Numbered from the stretch's first letter, positions 8,093-21,482 are shown. The stretch is DNA of 64,000 nucleotides from Halobaculum roseum (GCF_019880245.1 NZ_CP082286.1:1754521-1818520), one strand, 5' to 3'. Made by a program: numbers and translations. The notes: a model not told the origin generated them from the letters alone.

Positions 8093-8788
8093 GGCGGTGT
8101 TCAGATAAGGATGAAGAGTGAGGCGGAACGATTTTTGAGTGATCAATGCTCGAAATCGCCCGCCTCGACGGAGGTAGCGATTGCTTCGAGTTAGATTTTG
8201 TGGAGCGAGAGGCGACACCCGAGCCGGCGATGAAGCTCGGTATCCGACTCCATTTGGCTGGACTATCACTTTCGGATACCGTTTCAATTCTCGATAGGTT
8301 GGGTGTCGACCGCTGTCGAACGACCGTTCACAACTGGGTTCAGAAGGCCGATCTACAGCCCCTCGATGGCGCCAATCCGGATCACGTCGCGGTTGACGAG
8401 ACCGTGATCCAGCTCAACGACCAACGGTTCTGGCTGTACGCTGCCGTCGATCCCGACACGAATCGTTTGTTGCACGTGAAGCTCTCTCCGACGAGAAATC
8501 AAGCGATTACCGAGATGTTTCTTGCGGAACTCCGCGACAAACATCTCGTCGATGACGCGCTCTTTCTCGTCGATTCCGCACCGTGGCTGCAAGCGGCACT
8601 TCACCGACACGGCCTCGATTACAGATACGAAAAACATGGTAATCGGAATGCCGTTGAACGTGTCTTCAGAGAACTAAAACGACGAACTAACCAGTTCTCA
8701 AACTGTTTTAGCCACGCCGAAGCAGACACCGTCGAAAATTGGCTTCAAGCGTTCGCCTTCGCATGGAACCAGCTTATCTGAACACTAC
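8093..8788 (+). mobile_element. IS6-family insertion sequence
   Basis: A 696-base element with a single transposase. Its ends carry a perfect 13-base inverted repeat, GTGTTCAGATAAG at 8097-8109 and its complement at 8773-8785. The 8-base direct repeat CGGTTCGG flanks it exactly (8085-8092 and 8789-8796), matching the 8-base target duplication usual for IS6. The outermost three to four bases of the two ends differ. Base composition is clearly more AT-rich than the neighbours. The element looks complete, and the intact duplication suggests a fairly recent insertion. Confidence 0.88.
8146..8781 (+). CDS. IS6-family transposase
   Basis: A 211-residue DDE transposase. It has the N-terminal helix-turn-helix region (TVSILDRLGVDRCRTTVHNW), the first Asp in HVAVDETVI, the second in LFLVDSAPW and the Glu in VERVFRELKRRT, with the usual D-D-x(about 34)-E spacing. 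It is full length for haloarchaeal IS6 transposases (about 210 residues) and runs to seven bases from the right end of the element. No frameshift or stop is present, so it should be active unless expression is limiting. Confidence 0.93.
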   Translation: MLEIARLDGGSDCFELDFVEREATPEPAMKLGIRLHLAGLSLSDTVSILDRLGVDRCRTTVHNWVQKADLQPLDGANPDHVAVDETVIQLNDQRFWLYAAVDPDTNRLLHVKLSPTRNQAITEMFLAELRDKHLVDDALFLVDSAPWLQAALHRHGLDYRYEKHGNRNAVERVFRELKRRTNQFSNCFSHAEADTVENWLQAFAFAWNQLI

Positions 8789-18308: not shown

Positions 18309-19244
18309 CTACGGCACCCGCCCGAACAGGTCCCTGTTCTCCGCGACGTACCGCAACTCGCCGCGCGCCAGCTGCGCCTCGCGCGTCTCCCGCCAGTCGG
18401 CCAGCGTCCGGTCCGGCACCGCCCCCGATTCCTCGACGGACGCGACCACCGTGTCGAGGACGACCCGCAGGAACGTCGCCTCGTCGGCCGGGTAGCCGCC
18501 GGTTCCGTCCCCCTCCACCACCCAGTCGGCGCGGGCGTCGACCGCCGGCGGCGACCCCGCCTCCCGGAACCGCTCGGAAAGCAGCGTCGCCGCCCGGCCG
18601 CGGTTTCGCATCGTCCCGTGGAACGCCTCGATCACGGCGTCGTCGGCCGGGTGTGACGGCGAGAACCGCGTCTCGCCGTCGAAGGTGAGCGGGAGGTGGT
18701 ACCAGCCGTCCGGCGCGGCCGCACGGAGCAGCGCGAGCACGTCGTCGGGCGCCAACAGGTCGGCGAACGACCGCGCGACGACGCCGTCGAAGTCGCCCCC
18801 GCGGTCGGCGGCGACCTCGCGGGCGTCGCCGACCGCGAGTCGGACGCGAAGCGTCGCGTCACCGTCGGGCCTGTCGAGGCGGAGCTCCGACCCCTCGGTT
18901 TCGACTCCGTATCCGGCTTCGCGTGCCTCCGCGCGCAGCCGGTCGCGACCCGCGGACAGCACCCGCCCGTCGGTGTCGACGGCGACCCACTCGCCCGTCG
19001 GGAGCGCGCCGTCGGACAACAGCCGGCGGAGCAGCCCGCAGGTGCCGGCGCCGGCTTCGAGGACGCGGACGCCCTCCTCATCGCCGTCGTCCTCACCGTC
19101 GTCACCGCCGTCACCGCCGTCACCGCCGTCCCCGCGACCTCTCCCTCGCAGCGCAGCCCTGAAGGCCGCGCTCGCGGCGTCGCTGTGGGCGCGGTCGTCG
19201 ACGGTGCGCGCCGCCTCCAGGTACGCCACGTCGTCACCCTCCAT
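18309..19244 (-). CDS. Class I SAM-dependent methyltransferase (pterin-cluster member)
   Basis: A 311-residue methyltransferase. Motif I is VRVLEAGAGTCGLLRRLL (about 58-75), followed by VAVDTDGRVL; the rest fits a Rossmann methyltransferase with an extra C-terminal helical region. A Gly/Asp tract (GDGGDGGDGGDD, about 37-48) interrupts the N-terminal part and is encoded by a GTCACCGCC-type microsatellite. Its start overlaps the glycosyltransferase stop by 11 bases, and that gene overlaps the PTPS gene, so the three form one tight operon. The methyl acceptor is unknown. Confidence 0.82.
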   Translation of the reverse strand: MEGDDVAYLEAARTVDDRAHSDAASAAFRAALRGRGRGDGGDGGDGGDDGEDDGDEEGVRVLEAGAGTCGLLRRLLSDGALPTGEWVAVDTDGRVLSAGRDRLRAEAREAGYGVETEGSELRLDRPDGDATLRVRLAVGDAREVAADRGGDFDGVVARSFADLLAPDDVLALLRAAAPDGWYHLPLTFDGETRFSPSHPADDAVIEAFHGTMRNRGRAATLLSERFREAGSPPAVDARADWVVEGDGTGGYPADEATFLRVVLDTVVASVEESGAVPDRTLADWRETREAQLARGELRYVAENRDLFGRVP

Positions 19245-20337
19245 CGGCCACCTCCCGCGTCTCCGCGAGGAAGTCGCGGACCCCGGCGACGGTGTCGCTC
19301 CACTCGGGGTGGCGCTCGAACCGCCGGAGCGCGCTTTGCCCCATTCGGGCCAGACGGTCGCGGTCGCCCGCGAGCGCCGCGAGCGCGCGCTCGACCCCCG
19401 TAACGTCGCCGGGATCGATGAGGAAACCGTTCTCGCCGTCGGCGACGACCGAGGACGCCCCGCCGGCCGCGGAGGCGACCGCCGGGAGGCCGAAGCCCAT
19501 CCCCTCCAGGTACGCCATCCCGAAGCCCTCGTACGCCGAGGGGACCGCGAGGACGTGCGACTTCCGGAGGACGCCCGCGAGGTCGGCCGTCGCCAGTTCC
19601 CCGTGAAACGACACGCGGTCGGCGACCGAGAGGTCGTCTGCCAGCGTCCGCACCGCGCGGGCGTGTTCCGGCTCGGGCTCGGGGCCGACGACCGCGACCT
19701 CCCAGTCGGCGTCGACGCCGGCGACCGCCCGCAACAGTGTCGGGTGTCCCTTCCGGGGGACGAGCGACCCCAGCGAGACGACCCGCAGCGGCGACTCCCC
19801 CGCGCGCCGGTCCACGTCGGCCGGCGTCACCGCCGGGTCGAACTGGTCGGCGGGCGGCGGGGCGACGTGCGTGGCGATCCTCCCGACCAGGTCGAGCACG
19901 TCGCGTTCGGTCGTCTCGCTGACGCAGATCGCGGCCGAGCAGCTCCGAAGGAATCGTCGCTCCAGCAGTGTCGCGACCGGCGCGAGACGACCGCCCTCGG
20001 CGCGTCGGAGGTGGTGAACCAGCCCGACGACCGGCGTGCCGCCGCGGCGGAGCCGACTGGCGAGTCCCGCCGTGCCGGGATGGGCGAGCTCGTCGACGAC
20101 GACCACGTCGGCCCCGCGCAGGCCCGCCGGGATCCCGGTCGCGAGTCCGGGGGTGTCGAACACGCCGAGCGGGTACCGCCGCCACGGCACCGAGAACACA
20201 CGGACGGACGCGCCGGTCGCTCGCAGCCCGGCGACGAGCCTGCGGTCGTAGCGGAACCCGCCCGAGGTGGTTTCGGGGTCGCCCGCGACGACGAGCGCGA
20301 CCGCGAGGTCGCGGTCGGCGGACGCGTCCTCACCCAT
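19234..20337 (-). CDS. GT4-type glycosyltransferase (pterin-cluster member)
   Basis: A 367-residue GT-B glycosyltransferase. The C-terminal half has the GT4 pattern: SLGSLVPRKGHPTLLRA, VVGPEPEPEHAR, VSFHGELATADL and the nucleotide-sugar motif PSAYEGFGMAYLEGMGFGLP, with the E(x7)E arrangement. The N-terminal acceptor half begins AVALVVAGDPETTSGGFRYD. It overlaps the PTPS gene at its start (ATG 20337; GTG at 20340 is an alternative) and the methyltransferase at its end. It could glycosylate a small molecule rather than a cell-wall polymer, given its partners; this is inference. Confidence 0.85.
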   Translation of the reverse strand: MGEDASADRDLAVALVVAGDPETTSGGFRYDRRLVAGLRATGASVRVFSVPWRRYPLGVFDTPGLATGIPAGLRGADVVVVDELAHPGTAGLASRLRRGGTPVVGLVHHLRRAEGGRLAPVATLLERRFLRSCSAAICVSETTERDVLDLVGRIATHVAPPPADQFDPAVTPADVDRRAGESPLRVVSLGSLVPRKGHPTLLRAVAGVDADWEVAVVGPEPEPEHARAVRTLADDLSVADRVSFHGELATADLAGVLRKSHVLAVPSAYEGFGMAYLEGMGFGLPAVASAAGGASSVVADGENGFLIDPGDVTGVERALAALAGDRDRLARMGQSALRRFERHPEWSDTVAGVRDFLAETREVADGG

Positions 20338-20740
20338 CACCGCGGTTCGCTCCCGCCGCCTCGACCGGTCCCTCGTAGCCGGCGGCGGCCTCGTCGTCCT
20401 CCCACACGGTCACGCGGAGCGTCTCGGCCGGGTCGCCGGCGGCGGCCGGGGCGAGGCGCTCGTGGATGACGCGCGCGAACCGCTCGACGCTTGGGTTGTA
20501 CCCCTCGAACTCGGGCAGGTCGTTCAGCGTCGCGTCGCGGTAGCGGTCCTCGACGTCGTCGAGCGCCGCGCGCACGTCGTCGATGTCGACGAGGTAGTCG
20601 TACTCGTTCAGCGACGGGCCGGCGAAGGTCGCCTCGACCGAGAACACGTGCGAGTGACGCTCCCCCTCGGGACCCGGGTCGGGAACGGTGAGAAAGTGCT
20701 GTGCGACGAACTGACGCGTGACGGTCGTTCGGTATGTCAT
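20330..20740 (-). CDS. 6-pyruvoyl-tetrahydropterin synthase / QueD-family protein, atypical
   Basis: A 136-residue member of the PTPS/QueD (COG0720) fold. Zinc-binding histidines are visible as His15 (FVAQHFLTVP) and the pair His29/His31 in RHSHVFSVE. In canonical PTPS and QueD a catalytic Cys stands four residues before the first His of HGH; here that place is Glu25 and the motif is HSH. Glu in this position is known from the PTPS-III group, which makes 6-hydroxymethyl-dihydropterin for folate. It heads an overlapping operon with a glycosyltransferase and a methyltransferase and is not next to QueC/QueE, so archaeosine synthesis is not supported by context. Confidence 0.85.
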   Translation of the reverse strand: MTYRTTVTRQFVAQHFLTVPDPGPEGERHSHVFSVEATFAGPSLNEYDYLVDIDDVRAALDDVEDRYRDATLNDLPEFEGYNPSVERFARVIHERLAPAAAGDPAETLRVTVWEDDEAAAGYEGPVEAAGANRGDG

Positions 20741-20921: not shown

Positions 20922-21476
20922 TCATCCGACCAACTCCTCGACGACCGGGGGGAGCCGGCGACGGACGGCGGCGTACGCGACGCCGAGGCCGACGCAGGCG
21001 GCCGCGACCGCCGGGAGCGGCGCGGGGTAGAACGCGACGACCGGCGCCGCGAGCGCCGCCGTCGCGACGGCGTCCTCCGGGGCGCCGTCGTAGCGGATCC
21101 AGTAACGCGCCCGGATCCACCGGCCGTGGAGGTGGTCGTAGACGGCCTCCGAGGAGGTGCGTTCCCACGGGCGGATCTCGTCGCCGGCGCCGAGGGCGTC
21201 GGTGCCGGCGTGGACGGCGAACGAGACGCATCCCACCGCCGCCGCGACGGTGACCTCCGTCGGCGCCAGCGTCGCGAGCGCGGTCGCCGGGAGCGCCAGC
21301 GCCCACCCCAGCACCGGGAAGTGCAGCGTCCGCCGGTGGCGACCGACGAACAGGTCGACATCGGGGACGAGCCCGCCGACGATCCCCGCGAGGGCTGCCG
21401 GAACCGCCAACTCGGGCGCGAACGCGACCACGGGCGCCGCCAGCACCGCGCCGGCGAGGGCGTGGGTGAACGCCAT
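20922..21476 (-). CDS. Membrane-bound metal-dependent hydrolase-like protein (DUF457/YdjM type)
   Basis: A 184-residue protein with about four membrane helices. The early FTHALAGAVLAAP and the acidic/His segment GIVGGLVPDVDLFVGRHRRTLHF, then FAVHAGTDALG, are the conserved His/Asp residues of the DUF457 (YdjM, LexA-regulated hydrolase-like) family. The catalytic activity of this family is not firmly established. Start is ATG 21476 or the adjoining GTG 21479. It follows the 125-residue membrane protein after six bases, likely in one operon. Confidence 0.8.
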   Translation of the reverse strand: MAFTHALAGAVLAAPVVAFAPELAVPAALAGIVGGLVPDVDLFVGRHRRTLHFPVLGWALALPATALATLAPTEVTVAAAVGCVSFAVHAGTDALGAGDEIRPWERTSSEAVYDHLHGRWIRARYWIRYDGAPEDAVATAALAAPVVAFYPAPLPAVAAACVGLGVAYAAVRRRLPPVVEELVG

Positions 21477-21482
21477 CACGGC

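What the first reader, a model, noticed from the sequence alone, without database searches (positions are those of the whole stretch)
18309..20740. PTPS-glycosyltransferase-methyltransferase operon: candidate pathway for a modified pterin
Seen: three genes with start/stop overlaps, PTPS-family enzyme first, GT4 glycosyltransferase second, SAM methyltransferase third. Established: PTPS/QueD enzymes act on dihydroneopterin triphosphate, and cyanobacteria attach sugars to biopterin with a dedicated glycosyltransferase; halophilic archaea are known to hold unusual pterins (halopterin type). Inference: the operon may make a glycosylated, methylated pterin or deazapurine. It has no link here to archaeosine (QueC/QueE) or folate genes. 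This is the best candidate in the window for an undescribed system.
Basis: partly seen in the sequence, partly recalled or inferred. Interest (0 to 1): 0.65.

Follow-up and report, generated by a model that had tools for sequence, protein, structure and literature searches.

The report
Conserved unexplained GTP-derived pathway in haloarchaea
The three overlapping genes are one fragment of a biosynthetic pathway that salt-loving archaea and several groups of bacteria share, which probably converts GTP into a methylated, often sugar-bearing and perhaps lipid-anchored compound that nobody appears to have identified.

Summary
In detail: a PTPS-fold gene (20330-20740), a GT4 glycosyltransferase (19234-20340) and a class I methyltransferase (18309-19244) overlap on the minus strand of a Halobaculum genome. 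The trio is part of a larger pathway. In 80 haloarchaeal loci the neighbours are a zinc-free MDR dehydrogenase (72), GTP cyclohydrolase III/ArfA (41), a CDP-alcohol phosphatidyltransferase (38) and an Idh-AKR oxidoreductase (34). Over 40 genomes PTPS, MDR, methyltransferase and phosphatidyltransferase are kept or lost together (30 with, 10 without) even when unlinked. The same MDR-PTPS-GT4-MT order occurs in Streptomyces, Agrobacterium, Methylosinus and Thiodictyon plasmids, variously beside RibA, a RibD-type reductase and a CDP-alcohol phosphatidyltransferase. The PTPS lacks the catalytic Cys and Asp-His of PTPS/QueD; its nearest solved structure is the orphan SCO6650 (3D7J). The linked cyclohydrolases are riboflavin-type, and ArfA is often a dedicated second copy. 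So the substrate is probably a formylamino- or diaminopyrimidine from GTP, not dihydroneopterin triphosphate, and the product may be joined to a lipid. Pathway membership is strongly supported; product chemistry is inference. I found no description of this pathway.

The parts
20330..20740 (-). PTPS-fold (COG0720) enzyme, archaeal relative of the PTPS-IV/SCO6650 branch; His15/His29/His31 zinc site kept, Glu25 at the catalytic-Cys position, Glu114 pterin-anchor kept, Asp-His dyad lost
19234..20340 (-). GT4 glycosyltransferase (GT-B, EX7E motif EGFGMAYLE); start GTG 20340 or ATG 20337; overlaps the PTPS gene
   Evidence: EX7E read directly from P0002
18309..19244 (-). class I SAM methyltransferase with a conserved C-terminal region; overlaps the GT gene; homologous over its full length to the methyltransferase of the bacterial clusters

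Best explanation
The trio is one of several dispersed pieces of a single biosynthetic pathway shared by Halobacteria, some other archaea, and Actinobacteria and Proteobacteria. Proposed route: a riboflavin-type GTP cyclohydrolase (ArfA, often a dedicated second copy; RibA elsewhere) opens GTP to a formylamino- or diaminopyrimidine nucleotide. A RibD/ArfC-type reductase may reduce its ribosyl group (the gene is in the bacterial clusters; haloarchaea would use the housekeeping ArfC). The PTPS-fold protein binds the 2-amino-4-oxopyrimidine ring through Glu114 and, with Glu25 and its zinc in archaea, rearranges or closes it into a pterin-like ring. The MDR dehydrogenase then changes the side chain's oxidation state, as sepiapterin reductase follows PTPS in biopterin synthesis. 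The methyltransferase methylates the product, the GT4 adds a sugar in those lineages that have it, and the CDP-alcohol phosphatidyltransferase joins it or its sugar or polyol to a phospholipid. SHOWN here: the gene set, its cross-domain conservation, co-occurrence, coupling and residue states. INFERRED: substrate, order of steps, ring type and lipid attachment.
For: One pathway: over 40 relatives PTPS-A, MDR, MT and CDPAP are present in 30/29/28/28 and all absent in the same 10 genomes, including one of the same genus (Fisher 1e-8 to 8e-8, 1e-5 to 7e-5 after collapsing the genus and low-quality genomes). This holds although the genes are often unlinked: in this genome MDR is at C1:2322233-2323363, Idh-AKR + CDPAP at C1:2724604-2727443, ArfA at C1:604711. 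Nine of nine genomes whose PTPS locus lacks MT have MT elsewhere, in six of them beside CDPAP. Gene order ArfA-MDR-PTPS-GT-MT with overlaps. Riboflavin-type entry: ArfA in 41 of 80 loci; in 10 of 12 genomes with ArfA in the cluster there is a second copy elsewhere, while no PTPS-less relative has two; in other archaea RibA takes its place (L136, L112), once in one open frame with MDR (L141, 577 aa). Bacterial clusters MDR-PTPS-GT4-MT carry RibA, RibD_C, CDPAP and flippase genes in various subsets. Homology across domains: MT E 1.6e-30, CDPAP E 5.7e-22, PTPS to SCO6650 E 1.6e-13 and best fold match.
Against: No product, substrate or activity has been measured. ArfA also serves riboflavin and F420, so its proximity alone is weak where it is the only copy (Haloferax, Halohasta). 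CDPAP is missing from two PTPS-positive relatives (G029, G030) and from the Natrinema genome G426, so it may not be essential, or a paralogue may replace it. GT4 is absent from about a quarter of the PTPS loci. The bacterial PTPS-IV has lost one zinc ligand (HGA instead of HGH), so a zinc-dependent step cannot be common to all members. CDP-alcohol transferases can also join non-lipid groups. Co-occurrence counts are not corrected for phylogeny beyond collapsing one genus.
Confidence: 0.5

Rival explanations
1. One reading: a soluble glycosylated, methylated pterin (halopterin type) made from dihydroneopterin triphosphate by a PTPS-like step, with GT4 and MT as tailoring enzymes.
For: PTPS fold with zinc site and pterin-anchoring Glu kept; GT4 and MT in the operon; pterin glycosides are known from cyanobacteria with dedicated glycosyltransferases and from Sulfolobus (solfapterin), as cited in PMC3546692; halopterins of Haloarcula and Haloferax are recalled from memory only, not found in the library.
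Against: Catalytic Cys and Asp-His dyad absent in 81 of 81 sequences; linked cyclohydrolases are ArfA/RibA, none of the pterin type seen in the clusters; obligate CDP-alcohol phosphatidyltransferase unexplained.
Confidence: 0.25
2. Auxiliary branch of riboflavin or F420 metabolism: the PTPS-fold protein replaces or assists an early step such as deformylation, and the neighbours are co-regulated.
For: ArfA adjacency; Zallot et al. mention unpublished F420 involvement for the related PTPS-IV (PMC5041015); pathway gaps remain in haloarchaeal riboflavin synthesis (PMC8305020).
Against: PTPS-less haloarchaea keep ArfA and presumably make riboflavin; dedicated extra ArfA copies; GT4, MT and CDPAP have no role in riboflavin synthesis; bacteria, which have their own riboflavin genes, carry the cluster too.
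Confidence: 0.1
3. Surface-glycan or membrane-glycolipid pathway in which the PTPS-fold protein has been recruited for a non-pterin role.
For: GT4, MT, CDP-alcohol phosphatidyltransferase, flippase and alkaline-phosphatase-superfamily genes are typical of glycolipid loci; the GT4 varies more than the PTPS within this genus.
Against: Frequent presence of a GTP cyclohydrolase of one of two unrelated families, an ArfA second copy, and in bacteria RibD_C reductases; Glu114, which anchors the 2-amino-oxopyrimidine ring in PTPS/QueD, conserved.
Confidence: 0.15

Closest known systems
SCO6650 of Streptomyces coelicolor (PDB 3D7J), PTPS-IV subfamily of COG0720
   Same: Best sequence-profile match (E 1.6e-13) and best fold match (E 3.0e-9, TM 0.80) in the PDB; relatives have the same neighbours MDR, GT4, MT, GTP cyclohydrolase, CDP-alcohol phosphatidyltransferase.
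   Different: Archaeal proteins keep the third His ligand (HSH/HGH) and have an invariant Glu at the Cys position; bacterial PTPS-IV has FGPAQxxHGA. Halobacteria pair it with ArfA instead of RibA. About 30% identity.
[quoted passage not shown]
   Same: T-fold, zinc-binding histidines, pterin-anchoring Glu.
   Different: No CxxxHGH, CxxxxxHGH or ExxHGH signature (motifs from PMC5041015); no Asp-His dyad; separate clade; the genome has its own QueD.
Early archaeal riboflavin/F420 pathway (ArfA, ArfB, ArfC)
   Same: Shares the GTP cyclohydrolase III step; bacterial clusters add RibA, RibD_C and sometimes creatininase (ArfB-type) genes.
   Different: The pathway then continues with PTPS, MDR, MT, GT4 and CDPAP, none of which belong to riboflavin or F420 synthesis.
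Cyanobacterial pterin glycosides (PgtA, BH4 glucosyltransferase)
   Same: A pterin-type ring enzyme, a dehydrogenase and a dedicated glycosyltransferase.
   Different: Uses FolE-derived dihydroneopterin triphosphate and a different reductase; no methyltransferase or phosphatidyltransferase known to me.

Membership tests
PTPS-I/II/III (QueD, PTPS, folate PTPS) | Catalytic Cys (or Glu for PTPS-III) in CxxxHGH / CxxxxxHGH / ExxHGH | tested here: not met
   ExxxHSH, E25 in 81/81; the spacing differs from PTPS-III by one residue (motifs)
PTPS-I/II/III (QueD, PTPS, folate PTPS) | Asp-His pair of the catalytic triad | tested here: not met
   LDHHYLND of E. coli QueD aligns with YRDATLND
PTPS-I/II/III (QueD, PTPS, folate PTPS) | Three-His zinc site and pterin-anchoring Glu | tested here: met
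   H15 81/81, H29 79/81, H31 81/81, E114 80/81
PTPS-IV (SCO6650 branch) | FGPAQ signature | tested here: not met
   Halobacteria PGPEG, other archaea FGPET, bacteria FGPAQ
PTPS-IV (SCO6650 branch) | Closest homology to SCO6650 and exclusion from QueD | tested here: met
   tree split from QueD 96/84, midpoint-rooted with long branches
PTPS-IV (SCO6650 branch) | Neighbourhood with GTP cyclohydrolase II (PF00925) | tested here: met
   Met in archaeal L112, L136, L141 and in four bacterial plasmids (L153, L156, L157, L163); Halobacteria, this genome included, use ArfA instead
GT4 retaining glycosyltransferase | GT-B domains and EX7E motif | tested here: met
   Pfam PF00534/PF13439; EGFGMAYLE read in P0002
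CDP-alcohol phosphatidyltransferase | DxxDGxxAR..G..xDxxxD motif | tested here: met
   PF01066 E 3.7e-15; motif LDKLDGTVARTVGEQTQLGTRLDMAFDT
Halopterin (glycosylated neopterin) biosynthesis | Product is a glycosylated neopterin | not testable with these tools
   Needs metabolite analysis of mutants
Folate/methanopterin bypass (PTPS-III role) | Replaces the dihydroneopterin aldolase, so complementary to MptD | tested here: not met
   MptD in 40/40 relatives with or without PTPS-A

The most novel reading that the evidence does not exclude
Haloarchaea and diverse bacteria make a lipid-anchored, methylated and often glycosylated pterin- or pyrimidine-type compound from GTP through a dedicated riboflavin-type cyclohydrolase, a PTPS-fold enzyme without the PTPS triad and a CDP-alcohol phosphatidyltransferase: a new class of membrane cofactor, pigment or signal.
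Probability: 0.33. Interest if true: 0.88.

Novelty: new variant of a known kind. Interest (0 to 1): 0.72.

Why it matters
It would give a function to an orphan enzyme branch (PTPS-IV, SCO6650) whose structure has been in the PDB since 2008. It would also connect many proteins now annotated as 6-carboxytetrahydropterin synthase to one pathway across two domains of life. The phylogenetic profile names a small set of genes whose knock-outs in Haloferax or Streptomyces should reveal the compound. If the product is lipid-linked, it would be an unrecognised class of GTP-derived membrane molecule.

Tried and rejected
Folate bypass (PTPS-III role) rejected: MptD universal in relatives. QueD/archaeosine role rejected: separate QueD-QueE locus and different motif. 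F420/riboflavin auxiliary role judged weak. Methyltransferase fold search gave only generic class I matches, so no substrate hint. NCBIfam gave no equivalog for any of the three window proteins. Paper searches for halopterins, HVO_1281-1284, SCO6650/SCO6655 and for the gene combination found no description of the pathway; Phillips 2012 and Lin & White 1988 are not held. A Tyr-to-Met change in RibA that would stop it at the formylated intermediate (recalled from work on SCO6655) was looked for: the archaeal RibAs L136 and L141 keep Tyr, so they probably make the deformylated product.

Full report
WHAT IS THERE. On the minus strand of a Halobaculum chromosome (the genus is named through the relatives) three genes overlap: a PTPS-fold gene (20330-20740), a GT4 glycosyltransferase (19234-20340, or 20337 from the ATG) and a class I SAM methyltransferase (18309-19244). 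The overlaps are 11 or 8 and 11 bases. The flanks, SufS/SufU-type genes on one side and a YdjM-like gene, DUF7475 and RadA on the other, are not part of the conserved unit: they are neighbours only in Halobaculum and a few other loci.

THE TRIO IS CONSERVED. Searching 40 relatives and then a named genome collection (193 matches, 80 loci kept) showed the PTPS gene in many haloarchaeal genera. Around it, in 80 loci of about 35 genera, lie an MDR dehydrogenase (72), GT4 (57), MT (57), ArfA (GTP cyclohydrolase III, 41), a CDP-alcohol phosphatidyltransferase, CDPAP (38), a fused Gfo/Idh-AKR oxidoreductase (34) and a sulfatase-superfamily protein (20). The typical order is ArfA-MDR-PTPS-GT-MT or MDR-PTPS-GT-MT-ArfA, with median overlaps of 8 bases (PTPS-GT) and 4 bases (GT-MT and PTPS-MT) and a 3-base gap for ArfA-MDR. 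The dehydrogenase has no catalytic Cys-zinc motif (SAISxGTE, YGYAAVG) and is distantly BchC-like.

THE PIECES BEHAVE AS ONE PATHWAY. Over 40 relatives the PTPS is in 30 genomes. MDR is in 29 of those (the 30th has only weak matches), MT in 28 and CDPAP in 28. None of the three is in the 10 PTPS-less genomes, one of which is of the same genus (Fisher tests, 1e-8 to 8e-8; 1e-5 to 7e-5 after collapsing the genus and dropping incomplete genomes). The genes need not be adjacent. In this genome MDR is at contig 1 position 2.322 Mb, Idh-AKR with CDPAP at 2.725-2.727 Mb and ArfA at 0.605 Mb. In Haloferax and other genera MT and CDPAP sit as a convergent pair away from ArfA-MDR-PTPS-GT. Nine of nine genomes whose PTPS locus lacks MT have it elsewhere.

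THE ENTRY POINT. ArfA is needed for riboflavin and is nearly universal, so adjacency alone would be weak evidence. But 10 of 12 genomes with ArfA in the cluster hold a second copy elsewhere, three of the 40 relatives do too (G029, G030, G032, one copy beside the PTPS each), and no PTPS-less relative has more than one. A divergent ArfA clade is made up of cluster copies only, though it includes long branches. In archaeal loci outside or at the edge of Halobacteria (L136, L141, L112) the neighbour is instead RibA, GTP cyclohydrolase II, and in L141 RibA and MDR share one 577-residue open frame. Two unrelated cyclohydrolases of the riboflavin type thus occupy the same place, which points to a formylamino- or diaminopyrimidine as the first intermediate. 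The RibA of L136 and L141 keeps the tyrosine associated, from memory, with full deformylation.

THE SAME CLUSTER IN BACTERIA. The nearest solved structure, by profile (E 1.6e-13) and by fold (E 3.0e-9), is SCO6650 of Streptomyces coelicolor, 3D7J. Its relatives on plasmids of Streptomyces fungicidicus, Thiodictyon, Methylosinus, Peteryoungia, Neorhizobium, Agrobacterium and Microbacterium stand in the order MDR-PTPS-GT4-MT (in Methylosinus and Neorhizobium the fourth gene is annotated hypothetical but aligns with the MTs; Palleronia and Rhodobacteraceae SC52 lack the GT4 in that place). They lie variously beside RibA, RibD_C reductase, creatininase, CDPAP, cytochrome b and a flippase-type protein. 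Two other Streptomyces plasmid copies lack these neighbours. The archaeal and bacterial MTs are homologous over their whole length (hhalign E 1.6e-30), as are the CDPAPs over their core (E 5.7e-22). The published PTPS-IV subfamily (FGPAQ) belongs here. Its neighbour PF00925, called FolE2 in PMC5445326, is GTP cyclohydrolase II in Pfam.

THE PTPS ITSELF. In 81 haloarchaeal sequences Glu25 stands at the catalytic-Cys position without exception. His15, His29 and His31 are kept in 79-81 of 81, and Glu114, the residue that anchors the 2-amino-4-oxopyrimidine ring in PTPS and QueD (from memory), in 80 of 81. The Asp-His dyad is gone. Bacterial members have lost the third His (HGA). So the protein is built to bind a pterin- or guanine-like ring, but not to do PTPS or QueD chemistry by the known mechanism.

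MOST LIKELY WORKING. GTP is opened by ArfA or RibA, perhaps reduced by an ArfC/RibD-type enzyme, rearranged or closed by the PTPS-fold enzyme, changed in oxidation state by MDR, methylated, glycosylated where GT4 exists, and joined through CDPAP to a phospholipid. Membership of the genes in one pathway is shown (my confidence about 0.95). The riboflavin-type entry is well supported (about 0.7). Lipid attachment rests on CDPAP plus flippase-type genes (about 0.4-0.5). Ring type and order of steps are inference.

COMPARED WITH WHAT IS KNOWN. It is not QueD, PTPS-II, PTPS-III or a folate bypass. It is related to, but differs from, bacterial PTPS-IV. Zallot et al. 2016 (PMC5041015) assign PTPS-IV to F420 from unpublished data and leave PTPS-V unclear; I could not read the source paper to see which name covers the haloarchaeal group. 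No held paper describes the combined pathway. I rate it a new variant of a known kind (GTP-derived heterocycle biosynthesis) rather than categorically new, because the product is unknown and the bacterial PTPS-IV branch had been noticed, though not explained.

LIMITS. The tests for co-occurrence are only roughly corrected for phylogeny. No biochemical data exist here. The bacterial sample comes from plasmids only.

Noticed in passing
G000:C1:2720500-2731500 (L178:3985-6947): The window's own genome has a second piece of the pathway, Idh-AKR fusion next to CDP-alcohol phosphatidyltransferase, almost 1 Mb from the trio.
   Followed up: yes
L141:1990-3720: RibA (GTP cyclohydrolase II) and the MDR dehydrogenase lie in one open frame of 577 codons, an apparent natural fusion.
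   Followed up: partly
L112 (CAKZLV010000214.1): Contig labelled as an uncultured Bacteroidetes bin carries an archaeal-type cluster with RibA and RibD_C; probably misbinned.
   Followed up: no
L071-L079, L061, L065 (Haloferax), from about base 8400 to 8758: Haloferax GT4 matches begin about 375 bases after the PTPS end, so its N-terminal part is divergent or an extra small gene lies between.
   Followed up: no
G019:C1:555042-555959, G419:C18:508470-509408, G423:C21:13511-14158: MT or CDPAP copies with a single in-frame stop, possibly decaying genes or sequencing errors.
   Followed up: no
window 20922-21479 and L158:1162-1641: A small YdjM-like membrane protein lies upstream of the PTPS here, and a membrane protein of similar look lies near the cluster in 13 of 80 haloarchaeal loci; may be chance or an accessory.
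   Followed up: partly
L156:12055-12582, L154:11528-12085, L163:11011-11544: A cytochrome b gene recurs in proteobacterial versions of the cluster, hinting at a membrane redox role.
   Followed up: no
L046, L057, L068, L069, L081, L094 and similar loci: A GT-less subtype (often Idh-AKR, CDPAP, sometimes ArfA, then MDR-PTPS-MT on one strand) has a divergent MT and, where present, a divergent dedicated ArfA; may make a different product.
   Followed up: partly
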